Source: Terramyces sp. JEL0728 (taxonomy: Eukaryota > Chytridiomycota > Chytridiomycetes > Rhizophydiales > Terramycetaceae). Taken from it: DNA of 29,921 nucleotides. The DNA is taken from the NCBI GenBank assembly GCA_027603945.1, contig JADIIU010000146.1, positions 1-29,921 on the forward strand. The letters run 5' to 3'. A program made the translations under genes and the position numbers. Below the pieces are notes generated by a model, which had not been told where the DNA came from, did no database searches, and saw nothing but the letters and a program-made list of their open reading frames with translations. This document shows positions 6,403 through 29,921 of this stretch, one piece after another; the first letter of the stretch is position 1; the number at the start of each line of letters is the position of its first letter.

Positions 6403-7908
6403 CTATTTCATGTTATTGCAAGTATTAGTCAATTGGTCAAGCTTCTTTCCGCCAGCAAACTCTTGGACATTGGCAAAGGTGGTATGGCCGATGTTTTCTA
6501 ACGCTTCGTGGGTCAAGAATGCTTGATGCGAAGTCACAATAACGTTGCTGAATGACAGTAAGCGGGAGAGAAGATCGTCCTTGATAACCTGTCCAGTCCA
6601 GTTTTCGAAAAAGTATTCACTTTCGCCTTCGTAAACGTCCAACCCAGCATAGCCAATCTTTCCGCTTTTGAGGCCATCTATCAGATCAAGAGTATCGATC
6701 AATCCGCCGCGAGAAGTGTTGATCAACATTACACCAGTCTTCATCTTGCCAATGCTCTCCTTGTTGATCATATGAGTAGTTGAAGACACAAGCGGCGAGT
6801 GGAGTGAAATAATATCTGCAACAGTGTACAATTCGCCAACATCATCCACATATCTAACATTTGGGTTTGCCAACAGTTCCTTATCCTTATAGATATCATA
6901 GCAGACTATTTTACATCCAAACCCAATCAGGATGCCGCATAGAATCTTGCCGATTTTGCCAGTTCCAATTACACCTGCAGTTTTACCGTGTATATTGAAC
7001 CCAGTCAGTGCAGTCGACAGGGAAAAGTCGCCAGTGCGAGTTTTGTTGTATGCTTGTGGAATCTTTCTGTTCAAAGACATGATTAGTGCCACGGCATGTT
7101 CAGCAACAGCGTAAGGCGAGTATGCTGGAACACGAGCAACTGTTAGCTTAACCCGATCACAAGCTTTCAAATCAACATTGTTGAACCCTGCACACCGCAT
7201 AGCAATCATTTCAACGCCGAATGCATGTAATCTAGCAACTACTTCTTTGCATAACTCGTCATTCACAAATGCGCATACAATCTACAGTTAGCTTTACGTT
7301 ACATTTGCTTGCTTTGCTAATGCAACAGTTTCCCGAGTGAGTTTAGATTCAATGTACCGGACTTCATAGTTGATGTCAGCAAACTTTTGTTCAAGCAAAC
7401 CAAAGTACTTGCGGTCATAAGATTTCGCATCAAACACCATAAACACTTTTTTCTCTTTCGTTGGAATGTAATCTGCCGGTCCGTCTCTCCAGTAACGTAA
7501 TTCGGAAGCAATGTATTTCAAGATACACGATGTTATGTTGGAGTTGTTGGAAGCAAGGGTTTCAAATTCATGGAGGGTAGCGTAGAATACCTGGACATCA
7601 GTTTCGGCAATCAAGGTGTGTGAACATGTTGGCTGGCCAATAAATAGTGAAGTCAGGCCAAATGCAGAGATATTGTCCAGCTTCTTGAGTTTTTCCTTTT
7701 TGTTGTTGCAAATCGCAACATTGCCAGATTTGAGAATGAATACTTCGTTATGGACACTGCCAATAGTATACAAGGCATCGCCCTTGCGGAATGACTTTTC
7801 TTTGAATAATTGCAGGAGTTGATCTGTGGTTTTCTTGTCGAGCTCTTTGAATAGCGGCAGGGAATCGAGAATTTCTTGGTCCATTTGAGTTGATTTATCC
7901 GCTAACAT
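6403..7908 (-). CDS. Cyclic-nucleotide-binding-like domain fused to D-lactate dehydrogenase
   Basis: Two exons, 7303-7908 and 6403-7281, joined across a 21-nt intron, give 494 aa. Residues about 15-130 form a CNB-type beta-barrel (GDALYTIGSVHNEVFILKSG). Its phosphate-binding cassette (about 83-97, FGLTSLFIGQPTCSH) lacks the Glu and Arg that normally contact cAMP or cGMP. From about 153 on it is a complete D-2-hydroxyacid dehydrogenase: NAD-binding GTGKIG at 308-313, active-site Arg in NTSRGG (about 393), Glu in DVYEGE, and His in SHQAF (about 454). Known reaction: D-lactate + NAD+ to pyruvate + NADH, cytosolic. The intron falls between AN and IVCAFVNDEL inside a conserved segment, so splicing is needed for function. 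The fused domain could be a structural or allosteric module; regulation by cyclic nucleotides is doubtful. It is divergent from the PIERCE gene. Confidence 0.93.
7282..7302 (-). other. 21-nt intron in the CNB/D-LDH gene (phase 0)
   Basis: Starts GTAACG, has GCTAAC with the branch A at position 15, and ends TGTAG. Removing it joins ...LAKQAN to IVCAFVNDEL, the expected D-LDH sequence. Unspliced it gives a TAA after two codons. Confidence 0.97.
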
Positions 7909-8040
7909 TTTGTCACGACGAAATAGTTATATGCAAGATGAGTAATCATTTCTCATTTTCATAAATCCGAAAATGGAAGGAAACAGTCATTTGAAGTCAT
8001 CTCTTATCACCTTTCTGATGAATCAATCTTATTCATATCA

Positions 8041-8133
8041 ATGCAAAATCCAGTTGGTTTTTTTATTGTTTTGTTACTGGCATTGTTATGCTCAAATTTC
8101 AATGCTGTGAAAGCTGCACCTAAATTACAGTAG
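8041..8133 (+). CDS. Possible small secreted peptide or orphan signal-peptide exon
   Basis: ATG to TAG, 30 aa: MQNPVGFFIVLLLALLC, then SNFNAVKAAPKLQ. It has the n-, h- and c-regions of a signal peptide with an Ala-x-Ala-like cleavage site, but almost no mature peptide. No downstream 19-21-nt intron extends it. It may be a micropeptide, a relic first exon, or the head of a gene truncated by a misjoin near 8292. Weak support. Confidence 0.25.
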   Translation: MQNPVGFFIVLLLALLCSNFNAVKAAPKLQ

Positions 8134-8291: not shown

Positions 8292-8346
8292 GATCGTGGA
8301 TGCTCGCTACAGTGCTGTTCAGATATTGATTTTCTTTCGCGTAAAA
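8292..8346. repeat. 55-bp inverted copy (copy 2), just 5' of the PIERCE start
   Basis: Exact reverse complement of bases 1-55. It ends 18 nt before the ATG of the PIERCE gene. It lies within a minus-strand open frame that ends at 8167; the same frame read from window base 2 ends at 64-66. See the finding on contig-edge origin. Confidence 0.9.
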
Positions 8347-8364: not shown

Positions 8365-8841
8365 ATGAGCTTTGCAGCATTCCCGTTAGAATTAGAGCCA
8401 GTTAGGACAAACGTGCTTCGAGTGCCGCAGATCAACCAGGAGATTCACAATCTGGAAAAGAATATTGAAACCTTGGAAGCGTCAATTAAACAGATCCAGC
8501 AAGAACACAAGCCTAAAGAACCAACACAAACCCCGCACGAACCCCAGCCTACTTTGAATAAAACCAGGACTTCGGATGTGTACCGTACCAAAGGACCACT
8601 ACCTAAACGATTTGAGGAGCCAGGTAGACAAGCACTAAACAGATACATGGAATTATAAAGTAAAGAAGCAACATCCAATGTTTTCCACAACCGCAAACTC
8701 CTACGGATCTCAACCGCCAACCATCCACGATATGCCAACCACATTCCTTGGACAGAGTACGAAATTCTCAGAGGTAAGCGTGACTAATATTAGCAATTGG
8801 ATCATGCTGGTCCGTACAGAAACTTTTCATTGAATATTTAA
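8365..8841 (+). CDS. PIERCE: PIERCE1/2-like microtubule inner protein of the ciliary doublet
   Basis: Three exons, 8365-8623, 8643-8773 and 8794-8841, separated by 19- and 20-nt introns, give 145 aa. An N-terminal coiled coil (about 20-48) and a Pro/Gln-rich linker are followed by the family signature: YRTKGPLPKRFEEPD, SYGSQPPTIHDMPTTFLG, and C-terminal KFSEQLDHAGPYRNFSLNI. PIERCE proteins line the lumen of axonemal doublet microtubules beside the outer-dynein-arm docking site, so this marks a flagellated life stage. Both introns fall inside the conserved domain and are needed to rebuild it. I chose ATG 8365; an in-frame ATG at 8266 would add 33 unrelated residues and run through the 55-bp copy. 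The assignment is by recalled family motifs; whether it is PIERCE1 or PIERCE2 cannot be settled. Confidence 0.85.
8624..8642 (+). other. 19-nt intron in PIERCE (phase 1)
   Basis: GTAGACAAGCACTAAACAG. Joins LPKRFEEP to DTWNYKVKKQHP. The branch A is at position 15 or 16, only 3-4 nt from the 3' end, the tightest in the window. Confidence 0.93.
8774..8793 (+). other. 20-nt intron in PIERCE (phase 0)
   Basis: GTAAGCGTGACTAATATTAG; branch A at position 14. Joins STKFSE to QLDHAGPYRNFSLNI. Confidence 0.96.
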
Positions 8842-9050: not shown

Positions 9051-10586
9051 TTATTCAAAAACATTTGCCGACCCGAAATCAACCAGCAGTTTACAGTTGC
9101 CATTCGTACCGACAGTAGGATATACCTTTTCACCGTCGCAAACAAACTCATCTCCTATCCTTACTCCATCCACAACAAAGAATAGTACCAAATCATAAAT
9201 TACATGGCGCTCTACTCTAATACGTTCTATTCTTCTATATCCTACTCCGATTATACTTCCTCGTCTAGCTACAGGTGCTGCAAATCTAGTTTTGTTGTGT
9301 AATATGTTTCCAGATGTATGATAGGCAATAGATATATCTTCCATTCCAGGTAACCGGAATGGCGGGTATGGTCTTGTTGCGAAACCTACTCCAATAATGG
9401 TATCTTTGTCCATTTGATCAATTGTTACAGAGTAATAGCGCTCAGGCAATTCGGTAGATTCAAATGAAGGTGGCGGCAAGATACCCACCTCTGTTAACAT
9501 TCGATTGGTTTGTAAAGTGACTACTTGTCTCGATTTGACTTGGATTCGTTGTTTTCCATTTCCATACAACCCACCAACAATAACTTTAGGTATAGGTTCA
9601 GTGAATTCGTATTCTTTAATATTCAATAATGAAAATGTGGGCATTTTAGTTAATTCCACAAGTTCGGTGTTGGGAGGATATGATTCAAGGAAATTTCCAG
9701 CTCGTTCTTGCTGATCTCGTTCATCGCGTTCAATTGTTCTCGTTGTCCATTTTGGTTTCGATCTCCATTTCGTTATAATAACAGCGAGCATTGCGAGAAT
9801 GAAAAAGATGATGCAGATGTTGATGATGGTGTTTTTAAGTTTGTAAATAGCTTCTATTGATGAAAAGGGGTCGATAGTCGTCAAAAAAGAAGACGTGCCA
9901 GCAAATTTAACCATGCTTGCTGTGTCAAAATGTGTGAACGCAGTGAGATTAATGTAGCTATTGATTGTAAATTTTGATGAAGAAATGAAAATGAATTCTC
10001 CTCGAGTTTGAATTGCTGGGGTTTCCAGTTGTATTTCATCAGTTGAATTTAAATAATAGGTATTGATTGTACTATTGGTATTCAGGTTGACGTCAAAGTC
10101 ACCAAAATATAGGGCTAAATCGCTCTTTGAAAATAATGTTCCATTTGCATTTCCACTAAGCGTGCAGTTGAATTCAACCAATTTGCCTTGCAGTAATAAG
10201 TCCTGGAATACCAGATTTTGGCCTCCCTTGAATTTCGCACTAATAGTACCTTCCAGATTGACATGCCCATTAAAATTGATATAATCATCCACTTGCATCC
10301 TAAAATCCGCTTGGAACTCGTCATAATTAGAATAAAACGTTGCTCTAATCGGAGATACATGCCGATCAAACACACTGCTGTCGAGTCCAAAAAACGATTG
10401 GTAAAGCACATTGTTCATTGTCGATAAACCGGTAAAGGATTGATTGAACGGAAATCCAATCACATTCAAGCCAAATCTCTGTTCAGTCTGAGTGGGATAC
10501 ACCGTGTGATTCAGGACTGAATTGGAATAGGTATTGTTTGAAGCAAGGGCGGCAACTATTGGTGACGATTGGAACAAACCGTGCAT
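9051..10586 (-). CDS. Membrane protein with ectodomain, TM helix and SPRY domain (paralogue C, short form)
   Basis: Single exon, 511 aa from the ATG at 10584-10586; an in-frame TAA lies two codons upstream. Residues 1-250 carry at least seven N-glycosylation sequons. The TM helix is at about 252-273, followed by a basic stretch (KWRSKPKW). SPRY spans about 382-508 with PYPPFRLPG, GVGYRRIER and DGVRIGDEFVCDG, ending almost at the stop codon, so the acidic tail of paralogues A and B is missing. It keeps the PPPSF motif before SPRY. No signal peptide is visible at this start. A hydrophobic ATG-led stretch (MLVSFLVQV) lies about 70 nt upstream in another frame and resembles the start of paralogue B. 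Same inferred role as A and B; diverged well before they split. Confidence 0.83.
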   Translation of the reverse strand: MHGLFQSSPIVAALASNNTYSNSVLNHTVYPTQTEQRFGLNVIGFPFNQSFTGLSTMNNVLYQSFFGLDSSVFDRHVSPIRATFYSNYDEFQADFRMQVDDYINFNGHVNLEGTISAKFKGGQNLVFQDLLLQGKLVEFNCTLSGNANGTLFSKSDLALYFGDFDVNLNTNSTINTYYLNSTDEIQLETPAIQTRGEFIFISSSKFTINSYINLTAFTHFDTASMVKFAGTSSFLTTIDPFSSIEAIYKLKNTIINICIIFFILAMLAVIITKWRSKPKWTTRTIERDERDQQERAGNFLESYPPNTELVELTKMPTFSLLNIKEYEFTEPIPKVIVGGLYGNGKQRIQVKSRQVVTLQTNRMLTEVGILPPPSFESTELPERYYSVTIDQMDKDTIIGVGFATRPYPPFRLPGMEDISIAYHTSGNILHNKTRFAAPVARRGSIIGVGYRRIERIRVERHVIYDLVLFFVVDGVRIGDEFVCDGEKVYPTVGTNGNCKLLVDFGSANVFE

Positions 10587-10981: not shown

Positions 10982-12084
10982 ATGTCAAAGGGAGAAGGTC
11001 GTATCAAAAAGGAAGCTTATTTCGCTAAACTCTACAGTCTTTTGGACGAATACAAGACTGTCTTCATCGTCAATGTTGACAATGTCGGTTCCAACCAAAT
11101 GCACCAAATCCGTCAATCATTGAGAGGATCATCCGTTGTATTGATGGGTAATTGATGACTAATCCAAGGCAAGAACACCATGGTTCGTCGTGCTTTGAGA
11201 AACGGAATGGCATCCAACCCTAACTTTGAAAAGCTCTTGACCTCCATCAGAGGAAACATTGGTTTCATCTTCACCAAGGGTGACTTGAAGGATACCAAGA
11301 CTGCCATCCTTTCAAACCGTGTCAAGGCTCCAGCCAAGGCCGGTGCTCTTGCTCCAGACAATGTAACCATTCCAGCTGGTAACACTGGTATGGAACCTGG
11401 TAAAACCTCTTTCTTCCAGGCTCTTGGTGTCCCAACCAAGATTTCCCGTGGTACCATTGAAATTATCAATGATGTCGATATTATCAAGGCTGGTACCAAG
11501 GTTGGTGCTTCCGAAGCCACCTTGCTTAACATGCTTAACATCTCTCCTTTCACTTACGGTATGACCATTCTTGCTGTATTTGACAACGGAAACTTGTTTG
11601 ATGCCTCTGTTTTGGACATTTCTGATGAAGATTTGGTCAAGGAATACATTAACGGAATCAGCCAAGTCACCTGCATTTCCCTTGCAATCAACTACCCAAC
11701 TGTTGCTTCTATCCCACACTTGATCGTTAACGGATACAAGAACGTCTTGGCTGTTGGTATGGCTTTGGAAAACTACTCCTTTGATGCTATTGAAAGAGTA
11801 AGTAAACAAATCGCTATTTTTATTGATAGCATCTGCTCCACAACGATTAAAACTATTTGGTTTGATCTTGATGATTTCTAAAAACCGTACACTCTAATTT
11901 TTTCATGAGTGGAGCAAACAAGAACATTTTAATTCTTTAGATCAAGAATGCTATCGCTAACCCAACTGCTGTCGCTGTTTCTGCCGCTCCAGCTGCTGCT
12001 GCTGCCTCCGCTGCTGCCCCAGCTGCTGCCGCTGAAGAAGAGGAAGAAGAAGACGATGACTTTGGCATGGGTCTCTTTGATTAA
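10982..12084 (+). CDS. RPP0: 60S acidic ribosomal protein P0
   Basis: Three exons, 10982-11147, 11169-11797 and 11941-12084, give 312 aa, the usual family length. P0 is the base of the ribosomal stalk: it binds 28S rRNA and anchors P1/P2 dimers that recruit translational GTPases. The N-terminal rRNA-binding part reads [20 protein letters not shown], followed after the first intron by [10 protein letters not shown]. An Ala-rich hinge and an acidic end finishing in DDFGMGLFD match the conserved stalk tail. It is the only gene here that combines a 21-nt intron with a conventional-length intron (143 nt). Codon choice is strongly biased (GCT, GTC, AAG), as expected for a highly expressed gene. Confidence 0.99.
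11148..11168 (+). other. 21-nt intron in RPP0 (phase 1)
   Basis: Starts GTAATTG, has GACTAAT with branch A at position 15, ends CCAAG. Joins VVLM to GKNTMVRR. If retained, a TGA is read at once. Confidence 0.98.
11798..11940 (+). other. 143-nt conventional intron in RPP0 (phase 0), possibly structured
   Basis: Starts with a full GTAAGT donor and ends TTAATTCTTTAG. It joins AIER to IKNAIANP. Inside, TGCTCCAC (11834-11841) and GTGGAGCA (11909-11916) can form a perfect 8-bp stem, and a C-box-like TGATGA lies at 11869-11874. No convincing D box or H/ACA layout was found, so a snoRNA is only a possibility. Confidence 0.93.
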
Positions 12085-15655: not shown

Positions 15656-17227
15656 ATGGACTACCTAATATTCGAATCTGCATGGGTAAATAATACACAG
15701 TGTACAGGACCTCCATCTACAATGGTCCTATTCACAAATATCTTCCAAACACCCCTTTACAACTATTCGTATTACTTTGACTTTGGCTTACCTACTTGCG
15801 GGTATTCCAAAGAAGATCGACCCACCGGATGTTGTTATAATTCGTTGGATAAAGATATTACTGTTGGGTATACTTCTTACATGTTCAATAATTTGACAGA
15901 TGGTGTGTCGCTGGAGCATTCGGCACCACAGTCAGCAAATGGCTATGATTATTGTCAACTAAGTAGTGCGGACGGATCACCATTGTATCGATTTGGAGGG
16001 TACTATACAATGTATTTCCTCGGTAATTCAGCATGCATAGAGGGATACTTTAAATGCGACATGGAAAATTTGTACATTTATAATAACTCTGATTGTACGG
16101 GAGTTTACGAGTATCTGCCTGTTGCCAATACGTCTGCACCGCAAGAATCGTTTTTTCTCGGAAATGTATCGGTGAATACGGTTAGATTTGATCAAGGGAT
16201 GATTACTCCACAATGGCAGACGTATACACCGTTCACTTTTTTTGCGCCAAACTTTACAGAGCAAATTGATTATTTGATTTGCGCGTTTTACACTATATCT
16301 ATTTCTGCATTAGGATTGTCTTCGGTATGGTACTTGTGGATGTGTTTCCATTCCAAGTACTGGAAGCATCTCTTTTTTTCTGGTGTACTAATAGTTAATT
16401 TGGCGCATGTAATATTTGATGCAGTACTTTGCTATGTTACGAGTTGGGCTAGCGAATTAGAATTGGAAATTATTATCTTGATATGTAACTTGATGATACT
16501 CACATCTATTTTCACTATTTATGTCAATGTCATACTGCTCTTTGATCAATTTAGACAGTACAACACCCTGAGGTACCAAGGAGTCGCGTTTGTAGTAGTA
16601 GTCGGACTCCACTTTGTATTCAATTTTTTTTATTACGCAGGAGAGATAGTTGGATTCACGGGTAACGAAGTGTTGGGTATAAAGTTTTTGCAATGGTCGA
16701 CTATTCCCAGATTGATATGGAGCATACTTGGGTCGTTCATGTACGTTTCACCACCAACATTTCTAATGATTAAAATGAGAAATGTTTGGAAATTAAAGAA
16801 AAGAAAGTTGGATTTGGGTTTACAGCACACTGGAGAAACCAAATACCGTGTATTGCTTTCATTAGTCACAAGTTTAAACTTGATTGTTGCATTTAATATC
16901 ACAGAAAAGATTACCATCACACTTACAGACTCGTTTCTACGCTCGGATAGAGATTACGCTCTTTTGAATTCTATATTAGACACGCTCAGTGCAGCAACCT
17001 GCTTGTTGGTTGTGTTAATCAATGAGCGGATGACAGACTTTGCCAACCTCTTGGTATTTAAAGGAAAGACTGGAGGAAAGATTATCTTTGAAAATAATAC
17101 AGAGTCTCTGCCTCCAACAATGAAAACTGGGGAAAAAACCATTGCTGATTGTAAGGTGCAGAAGCAAAATTCCGATGTGTATACGTATGCTGATCAGTTG
17201 GAAGTGGACAAAATCACAAAGAAATAA
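15656..17227 (+). CDS. Seven-transmembrane receptor-like protein with Cys-rich ectodomain
   Basis: Single exon, 523 aa. Residues 1-203 form an ectodomain with about a dozen Cys (TQCTG, PTCGY, TGCCY, SDCTG) and many N-glycosylation sequons. Seven hydrophobic helices follow at about 204-229, 238-262, 269-296, 307-332, 349-373, 397-417 and 434-455, then a charged C-tail of about 65 aa. This is GPCR-like topology, but I cannot match it to a named class. No signal peptide is visible at the ATG, although the CTGPP-type extracellular sequence should need one; an upstream exon may be missed, or TM1 may act as a reverse signal anchor. A 33-codon ORF at 15518-15619 precedes it without a clear splice link. 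Probably an orphan, lineage-specific sensor. Confidence 0.75.
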   Translation: MDYLIFESAWVNNTQCTGPPSTMVLFTNIFQTPLYNYSYYFDFGLPTCGYSKEDRPTGCCYNSLDKDITVGYTSYMFNNLTDGVSLEHSAPQSANGYDYCQLSSADGSPLYRFGGYYTMYFLGNSACIEGYFKCDMENLYIYNNSDCTGVYEYLPVANTSAPQESFFLGNVSVNTVRFDQGMITPQWQTYTPFTFFAPNFTEQIDYLICAFYTISISALGLSSVWYLWMCFHSKYWKHLFFSGVLIVNLAHVIFDAVLCYVTSWASELELEIIILICNLMILTSIFTIYVNVILLFDQFRQYNTLRYQGVAFVVVVGLHFVFNFFYYAGEIVGFTGNEVLGIKFLQWSTIPRLIWSILGSFMYVSPPTFLMIKMRNVWKLKKRKLDLGLQHTGETKYRVLLSLVTSLNLIVAFNITEKITITLTDSFLRSDRDYALLNSILDTLSAATCLLVVLINERMTDFANLLVFKGKTGGKIIFENNTESLPPTMKTGEKTIADCKVQKQNSDVYTYADQLEVDKITKK

Positions 17228-17233
17228 AAAAGT

Positions 17234-17660: not shown

Positions 17661-18476
17661 TTATTCTTCCTTTAATTTTGCAATTTCTTGCTCCTTGTTG
17701 GTAATGTCGGTTTTTAGCTGATCCATTTGTCTTTGCAAGGATTCCAAATTAATCTTCATTTGGTCCAATTCTTCTTGGCGAATCTACAATTAGCAATGGT
17801 TACGCTTAAAATAACCGAGCTTCCTTTTTGTGCCTTTGGTTCTTCTGAAAACTGGTTCTTGAGCTGTTGAATGGAAGTAGCAGGCTTTTCTTCTTGTCCT
17901 ACTTGGGTCTTTGAAACTTCGGTTTTCAAATCATTGTTTGAAAATTGGGTTTTTAGTTGTTCAATGGAAGTAGCTCTTTCTTCTTCATTAATTTGGTTCT
18001 TGATATTTTGGATTGTGTTAGGTTCCTCCTTCTTGTCTGCAGTAGTGGAATAATTTGACGCTACAGATTCAGTTCTACCGTGTGCTGCTTGTTCTGCTTT
18101 TTGGAATCCGTCAGTGTAATTTCCTTTGACAGCAAATAGTTGCTTGAAATGCGGCTACATTAGCAATAGTTACTTTGCAATAAAAGACATTGTTCAATGC
18201 GGCATAGTTGCCAAGCTAAATTAACGAAAATCTACTTGCAGTGTTTTGTTACAGTGTCCACACCTTAAACATGACTTGTGGAATATCTGTGTTAGGAAAT
18301 CGTACTTTGTCATCCGCAGTGAGCTTGTCCATCGGATAAACGACTTTTTGACACATTACACACATGTCCTTCTTTACTTCTCCCAATGGAGCTGCTTGTG
18401 TGTTGGAAGCTACTTGGGTCGACATTTTTTCAAACTTGGAAGACAAAAGTTTAGTGTTTGCGGTATTATTTGACAT
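17661..18476 (-). CDS. Single-LIM-domain protein with repeated motif and C-terminal coiled coil
   Basis: Five exons (18306-18476, 18236-18286, 18174-18215, 17804-18154, 17661-17783), all joined in phase 0 across 19-20-nt introns, give 245 aa. Spliced residues 39-90 are a textbook LIM domain: ligands C39, C42, H60, C63, C66, C69, C87 and H90 with exact CX2CX17HX2CX2CX2CX17CX2H spacing. Three introns lie inside the zinc-finger pair, one only a residue before P89-H90. After the domain, a motif of the form SI.QLK.QF occurs three times (about 134-147, 149-162, 180-193), and residues 206-245 form a coiled coil. LIM domains bind proteins, often on actin structures, so a cytoskeletal adaptor role is inferred. 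It shares a 117-bp promoter with GNA1. Confidence 0.93.
17784..17803 (-). other. 20-nt intron 4 of the LIM gene (phase 0)
   Basis: GTAACCATTGCTAATTGTAG; branch A at position 14. Joins SSVILS to IRQEELDQMK, opening the coiled coil. Confidence 0.93.
18155..18173 (-). other. 19-nt intron 3 of the LIM gene (phase 0)
   Basis: GTAACTATTGCTAATGTAG; branch A at position 14. Joins VFYCK to PHFKQLF, completing the last C-x2-H zinc ligands. Shares its first half with intron 4. Confidence 0.97.
18216..18235 (-). other. 20-nt intron 2 of the LIM gene (phase 0)
   Basis: GTAGATTTTCGTTAATTTAG; branch A at position 15. Joins HCNKTLQ to LGNYAALNN. Confidence 0.97.
18287..18305 (-). other. 19-nt intron 1 of the LIM gene (phase 0)
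   Basis: GTACGATTTCCTAACACAG; branch A at position 14. Joins KLTADDK to IFHKSCLRC, restoring the 17-residue spacing of the first finger. Confidence 0.97.
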
Positions 18477-18593: not shown

Positions 18594-19188
18594 ATGAGCG
18601 ACCAGCTGTTTTCATCCAAATTAATCTCTCCTGCTGTTACCAAGGCATTGAAGCCCGGATTCGTAGTAAGGCCATTGGCAGCTTCCGATTACGAAAAAGG
18701 TAAGATCACCCTGACGAGGATTCCTAAAAGCCCTTGGAATGCTCACTTCAGTTGGAAATATGCCAAAAAAGGATTTCTTGGGTAATCCATTGCTAACAAG
18801 ATCGTTACAACTACCTCAAGAAGCACAATCACGAATATTTCACCATCGTGATTGAAGACACTGTAAAGCAAGTCATTGTTGGCGCTGGAACTATTTTTGT
18901 AGAACGCAAATTCGTTCATCACAATGGACTAGTCGGGCATATTGAAGATATCGTTACGCATTCCGAATACCGTGGAAAGAACTTGGGTTGGCTCGTTATC
19001 GAAACTTTGAAATATATTGGAGAGCAAACTGGATGCTACAAGAGTAATCCATTACTGATTTAGTCATTTTGGATTGTTCCGACAAGAATGTTCCATTTTA
19101 TGAAAAGTGCGGATTCAAACAAAAGGAAGTGGAAATGGCTTGCTACATCACTGCCAATGATGTCCCAAACTCAAAGGCAAAGCTTTAA
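18594..19188 (+). CDS. GNA1: Glucosamine-6-phosphate N-acetyltransferase
   Basis: Four exons (18594-18699, 18719-18781, 18801-19043, 19064-19188) split by three phase-1 introns of 19, 19 and 20 nt give 178 aa, close to the usual family length. The spliced protein is a GNAT fold: FVVRPLAASDYEKGFLKALG, VGHIEDIVTHSEYRGKNLG with the acetyl-CoA loop RGKNLG at 114-119, and C-terminal DCSDKNVPFYEKCGF. It transfers acetyl from acetyl-CoA to glucosamine-6-phosphate in the cytosol, the second step toward UDP-GlcNAc, which feeds chitin, N-glycans and GPI anchors. Introns 2 and 3 begin with the same nine bases (GTAATCCAT). Without splicing only a 63-aa fragment is read. Confidence 0.97.
18700..18718 (+). 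other. 19-nt intron 1 of GNA1 (phase 1)
   Basis: GTAAGATCACCCTGACGAG; branch A at position 15 in CTGAC. Joins ASDYEK to GFLKALG. Confidence 0.97.
18782..18800 (+). other. 19-nt intron 2 of GNA1 (phase 1)
   Basis: GTAATCCATTGCTAACAAG; branch A at position 15. Joins PKKDFL to DRYNYLKK. Confidence 0.97.
19044..19063 (+). other. 20-nt intron 3 of GNA1 (phase 1)
   Basis: GTAATCCATTACTGATTTAG; branch A at position 15 in CTGAT. Joins TGCYK to IILDCSDKN. Confidence 0.97.
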
Positions 19189-19244: not shown

Positions 19245-22200
19245 ATGGATTTCGCAGTGATAGAAGTGGGCTGCTTATCATTGTGCGTCAATTCGCTGCA
19301 TTCGCTTAGTAGGATGAATGAGGTCATGGTAGAACGCGTTAATTTTCTACTATACTTGAAAGAGATGGACTTTCACTTTGACGTTCATCATTCATTCAAA
19401 GAATTATACGAAGCAATTAATCCAGCGGACCTTCCTTTCAATCACGAGCCCGACTATAATGATGGAGCTGGTGAAGCAACGACATTTATTGCCTTGCCAG
19501 TAAAACGAAACGCTAGAAAGATTGGAAACCAAGCTAAAAAATCATTAATCGCCACTCTGAAATTGGCTGTTACAAATCCGAATCTAATTGATGAACAAGA
19601 CCAGTACACTTACTTGGATTACGAGAAAGCGTTGATGCCTTATATCCTGTCAACCACAGCCGATGATTCAGCAAAGACTTTAAAGATTCTATTGGAACAC
19701 GAAGAAAAGTTGAAATTGGACGACTATTACGTTGATTCAATCAATGCGACCATTCAACATACAAAAGAAGAACTGAAAAATAGAACTTACGATAACCATT
19801 TGGTGCTATCCAATATTCCGCAAAAAACCCAATGGTACAGCTTGAATCAACTAAGAGTCCACGCCGGCTCTCCCGAACGGTCTGCATCTGGAATTAATAG
19901 ACTGGCAAAGTATAAAAGATTAACCATAGTTACTATGCCCAGCTGCAGCACTTGGAACACAAGTTTTCTTTTGAAACTGGAAAGGTGAATATCGGATTTG
20001 TTTGGTATGAATCTTGGCACCCAAGTGACCAAGGTAAGTCGGGTATAATGTAGTCGCTACAAACTGTATCCAATATGAAAAAGCAGCTACTCTATATAAT
20101 ATTGCAGCAGTCTATTCCCAGCTTGCTGCAAAAGAAAGACTGTCATCGCCAGACGGCAAGAAACGAGCGTTAGCAAACTTCCAAAGAGCTGCTGGAATAC
20201 TGACTTATATAAGAGACAGCCTAACCCAAAGATTCAAGGTTAACCTGGAAAGCTACGCTGATTTGCACGAAACGTCCTTATCTGCAATGATTACCTTAAT
20301 GCTAGCACAAGCAGCGGAATGCTTTTATGAAAAAGCAACAGATGGTAATTGCCATTAATATAGAAAAGAAAATGAGTGCAGTCACAGCCGTAATTGCAGT
20401 CTACGTGTCTGATTTGTATGATGTAGCAAATCGATATACCACCGACCATTGTTCAATGGCAAAGCTGAAATTTCCGAAATATACAACCTTGCACTTGAAA
20501 ACAAAGTTTAATTTGTACGGAGCCATCGCACATTTCCATACTGCACCGAGCACATCCAATGATAGAGCAGTTGCGGAAAGATTGACAAGATTAAGCATTG
20601 CCAAGAAATTGGTTACTGCTAGTTTGGGCTATGCTCAAGAAATTGGCGGCTACTTGCAAGATTTGGTAACCGGATATGCCAAAAACCTTGCCACAGCACA
20701 CCTGTGCCTTGATTCTGCAAACCATGAGGTTATTCACCACACGCCGTTTGATCATCGCTTACTTGCTCCTTTAAGGAGACCAACTGACGCGTTGGTCAAC
20801 CCAATTGACGCATCAGATATCATGACAATGATCACATTTTTCCCAGACGTTCTTGAAGGGGTAATGTCAAATACGAATCATATGGCGCTGCAAGAGGTCT
20901 TGGAACACTCTAGAAAACTTGGCACCGAAGGTCAAGCTATTGTACAAGGACTATTAAAACAGTTTGCTGTGTAAATTCTGTTAATTGTAGAGAAGTAAAA
21001 CTTGGACCCATGCCAAACGATGTCTTTGACGAAAAAAAGTTTGATAAACTTAAAGAAGATTCAAAAAAGCTGGTAGAAGAGATTCACAAACTGCAAGAAG
21101 ATGAAAATATTTTGTCTACAAGGGATTTATTACTCGCAATGTCAAAGGTTGAAAGTTATATTCAGTGTAATCTGGATGCTTGCACTGAAGTACTGGGAAA
21201 CCTGATTAGCGAAAAATCAAGAAATAAGGATGAGGCAGCAGCAATTATTACTCTAAGGTCGATGCTGTCGAATATTAAGGAGCAGCAAGCCGAACATACT
21301 GAGCACTTGAACATGATTGAAAAGTACAGAATCAAATTTAATGACGAAATTTCGGCCTATGATTCTACCGAATGGACAAGGTCCAAGTTGGGGGCAATAG
21401 TTCCGGTCCTTGAAGAAAGTGGTAAATCTGCATTTGGCGATATTAAAACTCTTTGGGATGGCATTTCAACACTTATCGATAAAGAAAAGGAAGTGCTGAA
21501 GAGTTTATTGACTAGAGCTGAAGGATTACTTCCAAAACTAAAATCGCTTCCTTTTGGTAACTGCTGACTAAGCTAGATGGCTGGACAAAGCAAAAAAGTG
21601 TTACTATTACCGAAGCTATAAAAGCAAGAAACGACTATATAAAAGGAATAGAAGTAGAACTCCACGATACGTCAAAGCAACTTGAAGTCTGCGTTAAACG
21701 AATTGCGGTACCGCCTCACTAATTAAGGGACAAAAAGAATCAATTTTAGCAATCCATCTAAAGCTGACTGAGTTGGGCAATCAAGCAAAAATTGTTGCTG
21801 ATTTTCACGATTCAACGGCCAAGGGATTTGCATTCAAACAGGAGCTAATCAAAGATGTCCAGGTATTTAATTTTAATTTAGAAATTACTGCATGACAGAA
21901 AAAAATCTTGTCGTACGTTATTCCTATGCTTGGAACTTAAACAAGAAGACGATCCAGCATTTTTGCTAAGAGGAAGGGATACTCCAAAAGATCCATATGT
22001 GCTCAAATTAATCAAAAGCGAATCTGACGGAAGGGCAGAAAACTACAAACCTACCGAGCACACAGATACCAGAACATTAAAAGAGTGTCTTATTGAAGAT
22101 TTGATTCTCCCGCTTGAGAAAATGGTTCATCATCAAGACACGTTTGTAAATTTCTGGAAAGGAATACACGAAATTGTAGAGCCTCCTGTTGAAGTACCAA

Positions 22201-23348
22201 CCCTGGCAAGAAAGCCCTCTCTTTTGCGTGTCCCATCGTTTAGACAGGCACCATCTTTGTTGCATGTTCCTTCATTCAAGAGGTCGCCATCACTTTCTCG
22301 TCTACCATCAGCCACAGACAACTACTATATTCCACGTAATGCAATCAATGTCGACGAATTAGACGCATTCTACAATCAGCAATTTCGATTTCCACACCAA
22401 ACAAACCCACGTTTGGCAAAAGCACTTCATCGCCGGGCTTCATCAGTTACATTTGAGGAGGATCGGATTAAACCCAGAACATCGGTGTATGACATGCTCG
22501 TCAATGCCAAGGAAGGGTTCTTGAAGCTGCTTGGAAAGAATTCAAATGCAGCCCCAGACGGGAAGTTGAAGAATAACAGGAGATTCAGTAACGCATCTGC
22601 TCATGAAATGCAAAACACAAAAAGAAATTTAAATAACCCAAGGATTGAAATTTCAGATGTTGACTTGACAGGCGAGGAGGAGCAACTGGATGCCAACATT
22701 TCTGCTATTATGAAAGAGAACGCCAAACTTCGGGCAGAAGTTCTAAAGGTCAGGACTGAGAGGAATCTTCAAAAAAATCAAAAGTTGGTGCAAATGCAGG
22801 AAAATCTGAAAAAGCTAAGAAAGGAACATCACTCTGAAAAAAAGCTGCCAGAGAGGAAAAAGTCCAACAATAGTGAATTGCATAAATGGGTCGAAGAACA
22901 AAACAAATTAGTTCAAGAGCCTTCAAGTACAGATCCAAACAGCGAAAGCACTTCAAGCAGTGGCACTTCCACCAGATTGGCCCTTGCCGCAGTTTTAACG
23001 TCCACATACGATGCTGTCAGGAAGCTAAGAAGAAAATCAGCAAACGGCAAAGCTGGTAGAAGCAAAACCAATGAAAACTTTGAATTAAAAAACAAAAAAA
23101 GCAAAGAAATACGATCAATGGTGTTTGCAGATGAACAATTTCTTACTGAGCGTGATTTAAAACAATTGAAAAAGACTTTTGATTTTACCAGATTGGATAG
23201 TGGAATTAGCAAGTCGAGGGATGATTTGAATATCCAGGACTTGACTATTGAAGAATTGAACACTTTGAAAAAGCTCCGAAAAGGTAATGCCAAAATAACT
23301 TTGAAAACCCGCTGGACTCTTTCAAAATTGAAAACGAAAATGTTGTAA
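19245..23348 (+). CDS. Large BRO1-domain protein (ALIX/Bro1/Rim20-like) with long coiled-coil and Ser/Pro-rich tail
   Basis: Eight exons (19245-19909, 19930-20033, 20054-20344, 20364-20970, 20991-21556, 21577-21707, 21728-21862, 21882-23348) joined across seven introns of 19-20 nt give 1321 aa. BRO1 landmarks: LANYYAQLQHLEHKFSF (about 220-236), FVWYESWHPSD, then IQYEKAATLYNIAAVYSQLA, and AQAAECFYEKA. A helical V-domain-like region covers about 550-830. A 12-aa repeat of the form PSLLRVPSF(R/K) lies at about 943-976, and a coiled coil at about 1092-1154; the tail is very basic. BRO1 proteins bind ESCRT-III (Snf7/CHMP4) in endosomal sorting or pH signalling, inferred here. The BRO1 core is preceded by about 140 residues more than in ALIX. 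At 1321 aa it exceeds typical Bro1 or Rim20; the C-terminal third is unrecognised. Start by first in-frame ATG. Confidence 0.88.
19910..19929 (+). other. 20-nt intron 1 of the BRO1 gene (phase 2)
   Basis: GTATAAAAGATTAACCATAG; branch A at position 14. Joins GINRLA to NYYAQLQHLE. Confidence 0.96.
20034..20053 (+). other. 20-nt intron 2 of the BRO1 gene (phase 1)
   Basis: GTAAGTCGGGTATAATGTAG; branch A at position 15 in TATAAT. Joins SWHPSDQ to VATNCIQYEKA. Confidence 0.95.
20345..20363 (+). other. 19-nt intron 3 of the BRO1 gene (phase 1)
   Basis: GTAATTGCCATTAATATAG; branch A at position 14. Joins CFYEKATD to EKKMSAVTAV. Confidence 0.95.
20971..20990 (+). other. 20-nt intron 4 of the BRO1 gene (phase 2)
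   Basis: GTAAATTCTGTTAATTGTAG; branch A at position 14. Joins LLKQFA to VEVKLGPMPNDVF. Unspliced reading stops at TAA immediately. Confidence 0.94.
21557..21576 (+). other. 20-nt intron 5 of the BRO1 gene (phase 1)
   Basis: GTAACTGCTGACTAAGCTAG; branch A at position 15. Joins PKLKSLPF to DGWTKQKSVT. Confidence 0.94.
21708..21727 (+). other. 20-nt intron 6 of the BRO1 gene (phase 0)
   Basis: GTACCGCCTCACTAATTAAG; branch A at position 15. Joins VCVKRIA to GQKESILAIH. Confidence 0.94.
21863..21881 (+). other. 19-nt intron 7 of the BRO1 gene (phase 0)
   Basis: GTATTTAATTTTAATTTAG; branch A at position 14. Joins ELIKDVQ to KLLHDRKKSCR. Confidence 0.9.
22209..22310 (+). repeat. In-frame 36-nt tandem repeat (about 2.8 copies) in the BRO1-gene tail
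   Basis: Encodes successive KPSLLRVPSFRQ, APSLLHVPSFKR and SPSLSRLPS units. The protein repeat is clear while the codons differ, so it is old or under protein-level selection. R-x-P-S/R-x-x-S contexts suggest phosphorylation or 14-3-3-type docking, which is inference. Confidence 0.8.
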
Positions 23349-23404
23349 GAATTATTGGGTCAAAATGAACAACATGTAATAAATTAAGCTGCTTGTTTAT
23401 ATTA

Positions 23405-26400
23405 TTAATCCACAATATCATCTTCATTCATCGGGTGAGTTCTTTGGGTCTTCTTTCCGGAACTCGAGCCTTTTCCATTCAGGTTTTCATAGCCTATACT
23501 CCCCGTTCTGCTTGTGGATGTATATACTTGCGGTGCTCCAAATAATCTGCTAATAAACGATCTATTATTATTTGCTTTTTCCGCCGTTAGCTTCTGAACT
23601 TGTCTAGTTAGCCTTTCCACTTGAGAAATAAGGATTTTAATATTTGGGTCACCGTCAGATGAAACTAGGGATGAGTTTGTATTTGAACTGTGAATCGTTT
23701 TTTGAATCATGCTTTCTAATCTTGTTACTGTGTCTCGCGATTTTTTCATTTCATATCTAATCAAATTTTCAATTTGCTGCATATTCATATTTGGCAACTG
23801 CTGGGATAAGCCATCATTGTTGGCTACTAGGTCGTTGTTGGGGGTTTCAAATCCAAGAGAATTCGTTTTAGCTTTTTTTTGATTATCAAATCTTGAATCC
23901 GATGTTGCAGGGATGGCGCTCACTGAAATCATTCGATCTCTGTATATTGACGGTTTTCTGTCAGCAATGTCTTTCAAGCCCCTATTTGGATTACGTAAGA
24001 AAGAAGGCGAGTCTAGCGCGAAAGAGGAAGCAAAGTGCTTTGGTGGTTTTGGAGATTGGGCATCTTCTTGCGAATCAGCGTTTTTCCGAAGCAAGTTAGT
24101 GATTGAATTTCCAGTATCCTGAGCTTCTTCTTTGATAATATTACTTGTAGCAAATTCGTTACTTTTCTTGAAACTCCCTTTCTGTATATTTGCAATCGGC
24201 GGTGTTTTACTGTTTGTTTCGGGTGCCTTTAAGCTGATTCTTCGTGGAAGTGGTTCGGGGGCATGGACGCTATTCTTTCTTTGTGCAGGGATTACTGGTA
24301 GTAGATAGTCATCTTCCTTTTCGTATTTTTCTTCCTCGACTTTTGGGAACTCTGACAAGTGGGGAGAGTAGACATCTTGCCGTGCTTGAACGGTCCCTTT
24401 GTATTCCAGGTCCACATTATGGCTCATTTTCAGAGATTCTAATCCAATTGGAGAGGACTGTAGTGACTTTGGAAAATCGTTCCACCACGACTTTTTGATT
24501 ACCACATCTCTTGGAGCCGTGTACAGTACTACAATAATATTTTCAATTTCATTATCAATATCGGTTTTCTCTTTTGAATTAAAGGACGCAGCTTCACCTT
24601 GGCCTGTCCCATCGTCGTTCATGTTTACCAAAGACGATTTGTTGACCCCCAGATCCTCCCGGTTCCATTTTGGATAATTGAACGGCCACGGCCAATAAAG
24701 TTCCAGCTCGACCATTAATTCGGAAATTTCTACCAGCCATGCCGCACGCATATTGGAGGTGACATCTGCAACGTTCACTGTCATTAAAGCAACGATTAGG
24801 TTAATAAAGCATATCAAAAATGTAGCGTGGAACATAATACGGCAGAAAAATATTGAAAAGACTTGCTCTTGATCGTTCAGTAGCCTATACTTAGCGAATA
24901 ATTACGAATAATCGAATGTCATCATAGTTAGGGTGAATTGCAAACTCTTCCAAAAAGTAGTGAATATTGTTGTAGACCCCACTATTTTTTGGCACAATAT
25001 GAAAAACGCTGCAGTGTATGCAACGATCAAGATTATCATAGGAATTAAAATTGGAATCACGTTCAGAAGGGCTGAACTGGTAATTCTCACTACTGGGCCG
25101 ACAGAGGGAAATATCCTAAGGTACAATAGCAAGCGCATTGATGCAAATACTATAACAAGAGCCATGATTAAAGGTTCCACATTAACCCCGAGAAATACGT
25201 CCGAAATAATAGTATAAAGTACAAACATATGGATTGCCAGATCTATAACATTTGTTGTTGAATGAATGTACTTGTCCGTATCATCTACAAACTGTCTCCC
25301 TTCTTGTAGTACGAAAATAAATGACAAGAACAGAGTCAGTGTAGACAAAGCGTATATCGAGGCATCAGAGTACTGATCTGGGCTGTTTCCTTTCAGAGCA
25401 ATTAAGAAATACAATCCTGCAGTAGACAGGATAAATAGAATCATACTGAAAAACTGAATCGAAAATCGAAGCCAGAAATATCCAAATGCCCAATGATATT
25501 CCATCAGGGACTGAACTGCTGGGGATAGGATTATACTTTCATCACCAGTGCTTAGCAATCTAATTAAAGAATTCGTTTGGCGGGCTCCATCCTTTAGCCA
25601 GGTTTCCCTGAACGCTGGTTCTGTAACTAGTATCTGTGGAATCATACATATTACCGATTCACTTTCGTACGAATTGTCTGTCTTTTTCGAACTAGCATTT
25701 CTGAGTTGTCCTTCAAAATGCAAATCATCCCAGATTTCGTTTGGGGAAGCATGCTCTGGAGGTTTTACCAACGTTTTGAGAGTAGCGGCACCAAGTTTCA
25801 CACCTTTTACTAGTCTAGAACGAACAAATGGATCTCTATCTTCCGCTACTGGCACACAACTTGGAATGGGTATATTTGAAATTTCGTCAAAGAACCAAGA
25901 TACCTCTTGCGGAAATCTATTTGCAATGAATGGGAGATATTTTAGAACCTGTGACTTGCGAAACAGGATTGGAACTGCACCTGATGCCGTTTCAACGGAT
26001 TTGTCAGGAAACAACAGCGTCTCTAATATTAAATGCAGGATCTTTTGATGTCCGTGTTCCACAGATTCGTATATTGACGGCACCAAGTTATCAGGAAAGC
26101 ATTCTTTTTCAATTAATGCAATGAGAACGTTTGAATGGTTTAGGCGACAGGAAATGTTGAACAAGTTTGCCATAAAAATTTTGTGGACATTATCGTGAAT
26201 CCCAATATCTGCCAGATCAATTTCAAAGTTATTTTGTTCGTAATAGGAGATCAACTCTCCAATAACTGTTTGGCGCGAATGAGTTGTTGCTGTTGCAAGT
26301 GCCATAAATACATAAATAAACGGAGGGAAAAATGTTTGGAAAGCCATATCATCGGAATAAGTCTTGGATTGTATGCTAACATTGGGGTTGATATCTGTTA

Positions 26401-27448: not shown

Positions 27449-27529
27449 AACTGATGGAACTACCAATAAAACAGGACTAAGTTTGTTCTTGGATATTATT
27501 TAGTTTCACTTGAAAGAATCAGTGTTTAT

Positions 27530-29921
27530 TCACGAGTTGCGGACAAGTCTGAATTTCGAAAAAACATAAGGGTAGCCTGGTTGATACCAGTTCCTAAAGG
27601 ATTTTCGATGAGCAATACGCGGAATGGTAGCCCATGAAGCTCCAAGAACTACATAGTGCTTATCATCGTAGAAATCCGATGAATATCCTGGGTAAATCTT
27701 GCTTTGTTCAAAGCCGTCAAAGGGATAGAACTTTGTATTTGTCAATTCCCAACCATTTCCGACTACGTTTTCAACTTTATTGGAGGTAGCTGTAAGTGGT
27801 TGAGGATGTAATGTTCTAAATGAATGAGTGTAATTAACTGAAGACGTTGGATCAGCTTTGTTAATGAATGATAATTGATCTTCGGTCGGCAAGGTACAAT
27901 CGCAGTGCTGTGCGTATGCCATTGCCTGAAGTTGACTTGTTGCAACTGGCCATCTACCAGCGTGCGTCATTTCAACTGGTCCATAAACAGTTCTTACGGA
28001 ATATTCCGAATCAACTTTAATCCAAGAAGATGGGATTAAATCTTCTGGGAAGCCTTTTCCAGCAACAAATTCATAGTATTCTTGTACTGCGACAGGTCTG
28101 TGTTGAATTTCGAAAGGTGGAACTGCTCTTCTAACTTCTGGCACTTCACAGTCCCACCCAAACATTACCGGAGGCGAATCAAGGTCAAGATCCTTGGACT
28201 CGAGGTCGTTCAATCCCACGGTAAATTCGCCACCCTCGACTTTAACCCAATTTGCCATCGGAAGGGGTTTTTCAAAAGTTTCAAAAATTGGACTTGGGAA
28301 GAGAGACGGGTCAGAAATTGGTTTATCTTGTATAAACATGTACAAAAGCGTCTACAGTTAACTAATACTCACTTCAATATGCAGTGCCTCGTGTTCAAAG
28401 CACATATTAATGGCTCTGATCTGTCTCTTTGTCAGCTTTCCTTCTGCAAGCAACAATTGTAATCGAGTTCGCACTGCTTCGGTAAAATTCCAAATCTCTT
28501 TCACATCTGGCCAGATTTTTGGAACTTTTGAATGTGAATGGCAGATTGATGGATCTTCCATGTTAGGGTCAATGCCTCTTTCAAAAATTTCTGCAAAATA
28601 TTTGTTTGTAGGTTCCTCATCTACAGCTCTGGATAGTTGAATATCCAAAAACCCTGGTAAGTGGCCCAAGTAAAATATATACGGATGTCTGAGTGAAATT
28701 GGTTTGTTCATGTATCGGGAAGGGTCAATAATTTTAGTAGTAATAGCGTCGCTGGCTTTCCACAATTCTTTCCACTCTGCAATAGTAGGCAATTTCTGTT
28801 GTCCTAGTCCGATCTTGGTATCAAAATATATTGGTGAGCGGTAAAACCTAATATTAAATGAGCATTACATATGTACACTGTAAAGTCTCTTTGATTCAGT
28901 CCATTTTCCTAAATACGACATTTTGGCTTCTTGAACTAATTCGGCGACTTCACTTGCAGAGTACTTGTAGCTGTATTCAAAGTTGATGAGTTCGCCCTTC
29001 TTTAGCTGCACTGAAACTTTTTCATCTCTAAAGGCAATGGTTTGGTCTCTGGCTGATTCGTAGTAAGCTTCGTGTCTTCCGTCTTTCTCGTTATAGATCG
29101 ATACGTAAGCAAAGTTGGACGGATCAAATACCGTGTACTTGAAGATATTGTTGATGTTGACCAGTCCGTTCATGGCAAAGTCTCGGGTAAGTCCGTTGCG
29201 ATCATTGTACGCCAAAGATACAGTCTCGAAAGAGTTGCGCTTATCGATACCGCACAAAAACAAGTCTCCGTCTTTCATTGCAGTATTGCGAACATTAAGC
29301 AAGAAATCTGCGCCTTCTTTTCGGGTTAAATTGCCAATAGATGAACCCAACCACAAAAACAGCTTTCTTGAACTGGAATGGTTCTTTTGAATCCAGCTGA
29401 GAGAGTCGTGGTAAGTTCCCCAAAGTCCCACAAACTTGATGCTTGGATAGGTAGTTGCCAGCGGCTCAAGGGACTGTCTCAGGGAAGCTTCTGCCAAATC
29501 AACTGCAAAATATGTGATTTTTCTGTTGGCTTTTGTGATAGCATCCAAAATGTATTTCGTCTTTCGCATAGCACTACATTAAATTCCAAATACCCAGCAC
29601 CGAGTTCAATCAGAACATCGCCGTCTTTGACATATTTCTCGACCAATTCATCCGAGTTATTCTGCAAGACTTCAATTTCAGCATTAGTCAGATAGTAATC
29701 TCGATCATAAGTAATCTTGTCGAATATTTCAAGGCCCTTGTCATCGTACAGGATCATGGTCGGCAACGAGCGAAGTAAAGCAGTTGTTGGGTTTCCGCCT
29801 TGTCGAATTACACGGGAGTCAGTAAATGGAATGTTGATTTTTGAAATGCAATTGATGATTGCGTTCTTCATATCAACTTCAGTGTTGGAGACATTGGTGC
29901 TACCACGAATATCCAAAATTT
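27530..29921 (-). CDS. EGT1: Ergothioneine biosynthesis protein EGT1 (EgtD-EgtB fusion), 5' end cut by the window
   Basis: Four exons in view (29594-29921, 28869-29573, 28373-28847, 27530-28351) joined across introns of 20, 21 and 21 nt; 775 aa are visible. The first visible residues ILDIRGS match the conserved start of EGT1, so only a few codons lie outside. Exons 1-2 encode the EgtD-like SAM methyltransferase (MILYDDKGLEIFDKITYDRDYY, LIELGAG) that makes hercynine from histidine. Exon 3 carries the DinB-like helices with iron-binding His (LGHLPGF, HEALHIE). Exon 4 is the FGE-sulfatase-like part (VVGNGWELTNTKFYPFDGF, ASWATIPRIAHRKSFRNW) of the sulfoxide synthase that joins hercynine and cysteine using O2 and Fe(II). 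Product serves as an antioxidant thiol. The TGA stop is 81 bp upstream of the TRP-like gene's start, same strand. Confidence 0.97.
28352..28372 (-). other. 21-nt intron 3 of EGT1 (phase 0)
   Basis: Starts GTGAGTATT, the only GTGA donor among the tiny introns; TTAAC with branch A at position 15, ends TGTAG. Joins HEALHIE to TLLYMFIQDK. Contains an in-frame TAA. Confidence 0.97.
28848..28868 (-). other. 21-nt intron 2 of EGT1 (phase 2)
   Basis: Starts GTAATGCTC, TTAAT with branch A at position 15, ends ATTAG. Joins LYSVHM to FYRSPIYFDTK. Retention gives TAA at once. Confidence 0.96.
29574..29593 (-). other. 20-nt intron 1 of EGT1 in view (phase 2)
   Basis: GTATTTGGAATTTAATGTAG; branch A at position 15. 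Joins LIELGAG to AMRKTKYILDA, the SAM-binding loop. Confidence 0.97.

What the first reader, a model, noticed from the sequence alone, without database searches (positions are those of the whole stretch)
7282..29593. A near-uniform class of 19-21-nt spliceosomal introns in a fungus-like genome
I reconstructed 22 introns of 19 nt (7), 20 nt (10) or 21 nt (5) in eight genes: CNB/D-LDH, PIERCE, RPP0, LIM, GNA1, BRO1, TRP-like and EGT1. Each removal restores the protein expected for the family, including exact LIM zinc spacing and the GNA1 and EGT1 active regions. From general knowledge, introns this short are the norm only in odd lineages (Stentor at 15-16 nt, Bigelowiella nucleomorph at 18-21 nt, Paramecium at 20-33 nt). 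I know of no fungus whose typical intron is about 20 nt. This is close to the steric limit for a spliceosome.
Basis: partly seen in the sequence, partly recalled or inferred. Interest (0 to 1): 0.93.

Follow-up and report, generated by a model that had tools for sequence, protein, structure and literature searches.

The report
Twenty-nucleotide introns in a chytrid fungus
A chytrid fungus, Terramyces, appears to carry mostly introns of only 19-22 letters, far shorter than the human splicing machinery tolerates, which gives a new place to ask how small a splicing substrate can be.

Summary
Confirmed. The 22 reported introns (7 of 19 nt, 10 of 20, 5 of 21) are there. A gene finder found 8 of 22 with no motif and a flat length prior, 15 with a learned motif, 21 with a length table, and 22 with tables taken from elsewhere in the genome. 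The window is a contig of Terramyces sp. JEL0728 (Chytridiomycota).

The class is not local. In 229,921 nt (1.5% of the assembly), 253 of 323 predicted introns are 19-22 nt under a flat 12-400-nt prior, against 1-11 for seven decoy dinucleotide pairs. A model-free motif count peaks at 19-21 nt and lies in sense 176:6. Anatomy: GTAATT, branch YTAAY with its A at nt 14-15, last G 5-6 nt later. U2 snRNA keeps its branch-pairing sequence. Best read as U2-type spliceosomal introns pressed to a floor near 19 nt.

Corrections: introns of 15-17 nt are known elsewhere; RPP0 also holds a 143-nt intron; deposited models already splice at least eight of the 22. My searches listed no paper on them. No RNA was examined; U1 and U6 were not found. 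CWC25 keeps the glycine plug that Stentor lost.

The parts
7282..7302 (-). 21-nt intron in the CNB/D-2-hydroxyacid dehydrogenase gene
   Evidence: 2-Hacid_dh match 171-486 spans the junction
8624..8642 (+). 19-nt intron 1 of PIERCE
   Evidence: missed, found; PIRC1_2 over 53-145 spans it
8774..8793 (+). 20-nt intron 2 of PIERCE
11148..11168 (+). 21-nt intron in RPP0
   Evidence: deposited protein P0001 uses it; PDB alignment continuous
11798..11940 (+).
   Evidence: deposited protein P0001 uses it; internal hairpin, fold z -2.17
17784..17803 (-). 20-nt intron 4 of the LIM gene
18155..18173 (-). 19-nt intron 3 of the LIM gene
   Evidence: LIM match 39-94
18216..18235 (-). 20-nt intron 2 of the LIM gene
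18287..18305 (-). 19-nt intron 1 of the LIM gene
18700..18718 (+). 19-nt intron 1 of GNA1
18782..18800 (+). 19-nt intron 2 of GNA1
19044..19063 (+). 20-nt intron 3 of GNA1
19910..19929 (+). 20-nt intron 1 of BRO1
   Evidence: deposited protein P0121 agrees
20034..20053 (+). 20-nt intron 2 of BRO1; a 19-nt counterpart is inferred at the same place and phase in Boothiomyces sp. JEL0866
20345..20363 (+). 19-nt intron 3 of BRO1
20971..20990 (+). 20-nt intron 4 of BRO1
21557..21576 (+). 20-nt intron 5 of BRO1
21708..21727 (+). 20-nt intron 6 of BRO1
21863..21881 (+). 19-nt intron 7 of BRO1
24885..24905 (-). 21-nt intron in the TRP-like channel gene
   Evidence: joins two open frames; family match below its cut-off
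28352..28372 (-). 21-nt intron 3 of EGT1
   Evidence: EgtB-IV alignment 367-772 runs across
28848..28868 (-). 21-nt intron 2 of EGT1
29574..29593 (-). 20-nt intron 1 of EGT1, within the methyltransferase domain (gene is cut by the contig end)

Best explanation
These are U2-type spliceosomal introns of Terramyces sp. JEL0728, compressed to 19-22 nt across the sampled genome. The three signals form one nearly fixed block: 5' splice site GTAATT, 4-5 nt, branch site YTAAY with its A at nt 14-15, last G of AG 5-6 nt after that A. SHOWN by sequence: motif, lengths, geometry, strand bias to genes, spread over 21 sampled contig stretches, restoration of proteins, a U2 snRNA with the usual branch-pairing sequence. 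INFERRED: removal from RNA by the major spliceosome, which reads the intron as one unit. INFERRED: with 13-14 nt between 5' site and branch, against about 50 nt needed in human extracts, U1 and U2 snRNPs are unlikely to sit together as in the human A complex, so the 5' site is probably handed over from U1 before or as U2 locks on. INFERRED: deletion pressure in a compact genome shrinks introns until they meet this floor, which explains the uniform length.
For: Joined-frame test: GT..AG 67, 89, 43 at 19, 20, 21 nt, against 11-52, 18-37, 6-20 for 13 decoy pairs. Gene finder without motif, flat prior: 73 of 186 introns are 19-22 nt, against 5-11 for five decoy pairs. With learned motif, flat prior: 253 of 323, against 1-11 for seven decoy pairs. 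Model-free motif count by length: 60, 89, 41, 15, 13 at 19-23 nt, against 3-10 at each length 12-18 and 2-17 at 24-60; sense 176, antisense 6; 163:7 and 174:7 with genes found under decoy rules; 205 in all against 15-30 in ten resamples. Branch A at nt 14 or 15 in 278 of 338. Under the flat prior 58 introns of 19 nt, one of 18 and one of 16. U2 snRNA 140 bits, GUGUAGUAUC intact; matches to CWC25, YJU2 and ISY1. Coding fraction 0.84, median intergenic gap 105 nt, by my gene finder. Human minimum of about 50 nt: PMC6692369 (passages). Deposited models splice at least eight of the 22. A relative's protein fits a same-place 19-nt intron read through.
Against: No RNA data. U1 (RF00003): no match, and two pattern hits that no Rfam family matches. 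U6: two copies of one sequence below the cut-off, no pattern hit, one and four further pattern hits that no Rfam family matches. RED_N: no candidate, though the controls of that search also rang in none. The hand-off in early assembly is not tested. One search used a length table favouring 19-22 nt, so its 361 of 386 is an upper figure. Without a length prior the finder places only 15 of the 22 window introns exactly. At 22 nt the crude test does not beat its decoys.
Confidence: 0.93

Rival explanations
1. The introns are real but already recorded: the depositors' gene models contain them, so nothing is new beyond the literature not having remarked on it.
For: Deposited BRO1 P0121 is identical to my spliced model over its 1281 aa and so uses all seven introns; deposited RPP0 P0001 begins at the Met just before the 21-nt intron and uses it.
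Against: Ten paper searches listed no paper on about 20-nt introns in a chytrid; the listings are capped and the library holds open papers only. The one paper with Terramyces, intron and genome is a classification. The genome paper that I recall was not held. Only two of the eight deposited proteins were compared.
Confidence: 0.3
2. Sequencing or assembly artefacts inserted short strings into genes.
For: One draft assembly only; some sequence is present twice (L035/L036, 99.3% alike).
Against: Artefacts would not carry GT, YTAAY and AG at near-fixed spacing, nor follow the gene strand 176:6. The two CWC25 copies on different contigs carry the same 20-nt intron.
Confidence: 0.01
3. The short segments are removed from DNA (as ciliate internal eliminated sequences are) or skipped by ribosomes, not spliced.
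For: The lengths resemble the shortest eliminated sequences (recalled).
Against: Sense-strand GT/branch/AG signals fit U2 snRNA; I know of no such process in fungi (recalled).
Confidence: 0.01
4. Many of the introns are not removed constitutively but are retained in part, as a regulatory or decay signal.
For: Kept in the message, 353 of 378 introns of 16-24 nt would shift the frame or bring a stop; the finder sees introns without such effects poorly, so this count is biased.
Against: They sit inside conserved domains of housekeeping genes and are dense, 1.88 per kb of CDS.
Confidence: 0.1

Closest known systems
Bigelowiella natans (chlorarachniophyte) nucleomorph introns, 18-21 nt
   Same: Nearly the same narrow length range, many introns, compact genome (PMC10245619, section 7 read)
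   Different: A relic algal nucleus; here a fungal genome of 15 Mb
Heterotrich ciliate introns (Stentor, 15-16 nt)
   Same: Uniform ultrashort introns in an organism that is not a reduced parasite
   Different: Here about 4 nt longer, with about 14 nt from 5' site to branch A where a turn of 10 nt is given for Stentor; CWC25 glycine plug kept here, absent in Stentor (PMC9505925, section 2.6 read)
Mikrocytid introns, 16-17 nt
   Same: Narrow size and conserved signals
   Different: 224 introns in the reduced parasite Mikrocytos mackini (PMC10245619); here an estimated 16,500-23,600
Paramecium and Nyctotherus introns, about 25 nt
   Same: Short and uniform
   Different: Ciliates, longer (start of the abstract of PMC5014332 in a listing)
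Other fungi, for example Cryptococcus (mean 63 nt), and microsporidia
   Same: Fungal spliceosome
   Different: Cryptococcus introns about three times longer (PMC8476143, passages); microsporidian introns of about 23 nt and up, few per genome, are recalled

Membership tests
U2-type spliceosomal intron | GT-AG ends above decoy expectation | tested here: met
U2-type spliceosomal intron | Branch site that can pair with U2, upstream of AG | tested here: met
   clear YTAAY-like motif in 338 of 378 introns of 16-24 nt; U2 GUGUAGUAUC
U2-type spliceosomal intron | Major snRNAs U1, U2, U4, U5, U6 in the genome | tested here: inconclusive
   U2 found; U1 and U6 not found; U4 and U5 not searched
U2-type spliceosomal intron | Removed from RNA, as a lariat | not testable with these tools
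   no reads held
U12-type intron | AT-AC or GTATCC start and TCCTTAAC branch (consensus recalled) | tested here: not met
   AT..AC gives 1 prediction of 19-22 nt against 253 for GT..AG; donor GTAATT and branch YTAAY
Ultrashort intron class (nucleomorph, heterotrich, mikrocytid type) | Narrow length peak below 30 nt that holds most introns | tested here: met
   253 of 323 at flat prior
Ultrashort intron class (nucleomorph, heterotrich, mikrocytid type) | Changed branching factors, as proposed for Stentor | tested here: inconclusive
   CWC25 start MGGGDLNLKKSWHP kept, YJU2 aligned from residue 1; ISY1 start differs from MARNEEK of relatives, but the gene model there is unsure

The most novel reading that the evidence does not exclude
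The Terramycetaceae have evolved a genome-wide spliceosomal system for 19-22-nt introns in a fungus, with a rigid 13-14-nt spacing from 5' site to branch that rules out the usual simultaneous U1/U2 occupancy, so that early assembly must be re-ordered; and they reached it by another route than Stentor, keeping the CWC25 plug while altering ISY1.
Probability: 0.35. Interest if true: 0.87.

Novelty: new member of a known kind. Interest (0 to 1): 0.76.

Why it matters
In what I read, genome-wide ultrashort introns are described from ciliates, relic nuclei and reduced parasites. A chytrid with thousands of 19-22-nt introns would bring the problem into Fungi, where another chytrid (Spizellomyces) can be transformed (title and abstract start of PMC7213984) and spliceosome structures exist. 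One could ask directly how little intron a conventional spliceosome needs, which proteins have to change, and whether intron length is set by deletion pressure against a steric floor. It has practical weight too: two deposited proteins of the family are damaged at such introns (P0001 starts late, P0122 has a shifted frame and an apparent read-through).

Tried and rejected
snRNAs: U1 by RF00003 (no match) and by a 5'-end plus loop pattern (two hits, no Rfam match in those loci). U6 by RF00026 (two 27-bit hits, copies of one sequence) and by patterns (none; one hit, its locus without Rfam match; four hits, loci without Rfam match); I looked for the hit in its locus and did not find the string in the orientation tried. 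SSU rRNA could not be searched. RED_N: no candidate, uninformative. SF1, U2AF, U4, U5 and SMU1 were not searched. Amoeboaphelidium occidentale was considered as the organism from genome size and GC (PMC10608142, table) and dropped when the protein search named Terramyces. A 7-residue insert KVNYFQQ in Boothiomyces macroporosus P0123 was weighed as a retained 21-nt intron and set aside: I could fit no branch motif; 116 introns were kept for a first logo after filters on length, third base and branch distance; it is illustrative only; 40 of 378 introns without a clear branch motif were left out of the spacing counts, and 14 of the 338 kept have the A at nt 10-12, probably mis-assigned. The 20 stretches were picked by place from large contigs, not at random. 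A note of mine calls them random; that is wrong.
Full report
WHAT THE WINDOW IS. The window is contig C146 of an assembly of 15,016,339 bases in 231 contigs. A search with the spliced RPP0 protein gave as best hit a deposited protein of Terramyces sp. JEL0728 on a contig of exactly 29,921 bases. The taxonomy places it in Chytridiomycota, Rhizophydiales, Terramycetaceae.

THE 22 INTRONS. Each was rebuilt: 19 nt (7), 20 nt (10), 21 nt (5), as stated. I wrote a gene finder that starts from long open frames with no intron motif and a flat 12-400-nt length prior, then learns donor, branch and acceptor tables, then gets a length table taken from the histogram. It placed 8, 15 and 21 of the 22 exactly; with motif, codon and length tables from the other 20 stretches alone it placed 22 of 22. 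Under the flat prior it fused neighbouring short introns in LIM and GNA1. Its other calls in the window include 11798-11940, a 143-nt intron in RPP0 that is real, since the deposited protein needs it and the alignment to solved P0 proteins runs on across it, and some that I take as spurious, such as 4784-4803. Spliced proteins reach their Pfam families across the joins, GNA1 aligns to 2vez at E 4e-45, RPP0 at E 4e-120 over residues 4-312, EGT1 to EgtD and EgtB structures. The TRP-like join is weakest: two long open frames joined, channel family below its cut-off.

BEYOND THE WINDOW. I took the window plus 20 stretches of 10 kb from large contigs, 229,921 nt or 1.5% of the assembly, chosen by place and not at random. 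Four tests agree. (1) Joining two open frames by removing GT..AG is in excess at 19, 20 and 21 nt (67, 89, 43) over 13 decoy pairs (highest 52, 37, 20); at 22 nt it only equals the highest decoy. (2) No motif, flat prior: 73 of 186 introns are 19-22 nt, against 5-11 for five decoys. (3) Learned motif, flat prior: 253 of 323, against 1-11 for seven decoys; at 31-60, 61-100, 101-200 and 201-400 nt the GT-AG counts are below every decoy. (4) No gene model: strings GTA..YTAAY..AG number 60, 89, 41, 15, 13 at 19-23 nt, against 3-10 at each length 12-18 and 2-17 at 24-60, so the clear peak is 19-21; they lie in sense in 176 cases and antisense in 6, and 163:7 or 174:7 when the genes come from runs with decoy intron rules. 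With the length table 361 of 386 are 19-22 nt, an upper figure because of the prior. If the sample stands for the whole, the genome holds about 16,500 to 23,600 such introns.

ANATOMY. Donor GT, +3 A 0.89, +4 A 0.59, +5 T 0.53 (G 0.21), +6 T 0.67 (261 introns of 18-23 nt). Branch YTAAY. The branch A is at nt 14 or 15 in 278 of 338 introns with a clear motif, and the last G is 5 or 6 nt after it in 287 of 338. The floor is sharp: with the flat prior 58 introns of 19 nt, one of 18, one of 16; A at nt 14 in 138, at nt 13 in 3. Introns are AT-rich (GC 0.30, CDS 0.41). In 106 complete predicted genes of at least 100 aa there are 2.61 introns per gene, 1.88 per kb of CDS, and 28 genes without introns; coding fraction 0.84, median gap between genes 105 nt (figures of my gene finder, which had the length table).

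MACHINERY. U2 snRNA scores 140 bits and keeps GUGUAGUAUC. U1 and U6 were not found, which does not show absence. For Stentor, a lost glycine plug of CWC25 and a changed ISY1 N-terminus were proposed to make room for a tight lariat (PMC9505925, section 2.6 read). In Terramyces CWC25 begins MGGGDLNLKKSWHP, as in human, and YJU2 aligns to human from residue 1. So loss of the plug is not required for introns of about 20 nt. ISY1 begins MAPKTLAQKQE in my model and in a deposited Boothiomyces JEL0838 protein, where Homolaphlyctis and Fimicolochytrium have MARNEEK; my model there needs exons of 4 and 3 nt, and the Boothiomyces protein lacks four residues of it, so this is unsettled.

MECHANISM. I infer excision by the major spliceosome. 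In human systems about 50 nt between 5' site and branch are needed, and 35 nt abolished assembly on one substrate (PMC6692369, passages). Here it is 13-14 nt. The simplest reading is that U1 leaves before U2 locks on, or never shares the intron with it, and that U6 takes the 5' site as U2 pairs with the branch. This is inference. The uniform length fits deletion pressure in a compact genome that stops at a functional floor, the idea put forward for mikrocytids (PMC10245619, section 7 read).

RELATIVES AND DEPOSITED MODELS. The deposited BRO1 (P0121) is identical to my model over its 1281 aa, so the depositors splice all seven introns; deposited RPP0 (P0001) uses the 21-nt intron but starts at the Met just before it. 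That is eight of the 22; the other 14 were not compared. In Boothiomyces sp. JEL0866 the deposited BRO1 (P0122) reads KVKNTNIV at the place and phase of Terramyces intron 20034-20053, and the residues before it resemble the Terramyces exon read in another frame. Back-translated, the extra residues allow exactly 19 nt of the form GTNAARAAYACNAAYATHG, which can hold CTAAY and TAG. This is inference from a protein; its DNA was not seen.

LITERATURE. Ten searches of the open library listed no paper on introns of about 20 nt in a chytrid; listings are capped. Seen: passages of PMC8476143 (Cryptococcus mean 63 nt; Chytridiomycota 3.93 introns per kb in two species), PMC5364385, PMC6692369, PMC8371127 and PMC13391722; passages and one section each of PMC10245619, PMC10608142 and PMC9505925. 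The genome paper that I recall for this strain was not held.

VERDICT. It is a new member of the known class of ultrashort spliceosomal introns, in a kingdom where I found no such class described.

Noticed in passing
window 11798-11940: The 143-nt RPP0 intron contains an 8-bp stem (UGCUCCAC/GUGGAGCA) around about 70 nt (fold z -2.17); it could host a small RNA or bring the intron ends together. No Rfam family matched the window at gathering score.
   Followed up: partly
window 1-55 and 8292-8346: The first 55 bases of the contig are an exact inverted copy of 8292-8346.
   Followed up: partly
window 6403-7908: A cyclic-nucleotide-binding domain and a D-2-hydroxyacid dehydrogenase in one reading frame across a 21-nt intron.
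   Followed up: no
L035 and L036 (G000 C30 and C33): CWC25 and its neighbours are present twice at 99.3% identity on two contigs: uncollapsed alleles or a recent duplication.
   Followed up: partly
L033 1963-2061: The ISY1 N-terminus seems to need exons of 4 and 3 nt between introns of 17, 20 and 21 nt, and differs from the conserved MARNEEK start.
   Followed up: partly
window 663-1106 and 3176-3622: Two neighbouring genes without predicted introns share 72% identity over 457 aligned bases; a third gene at 9051-10586 looks related by eye only.
   Followed up: no
short introns, position +5: The donor prefers T over G at +5 (0.53 against 0.21), which would mismatch a standard U1 5' end (recalled); U1 was not found.
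   Followed up: partly
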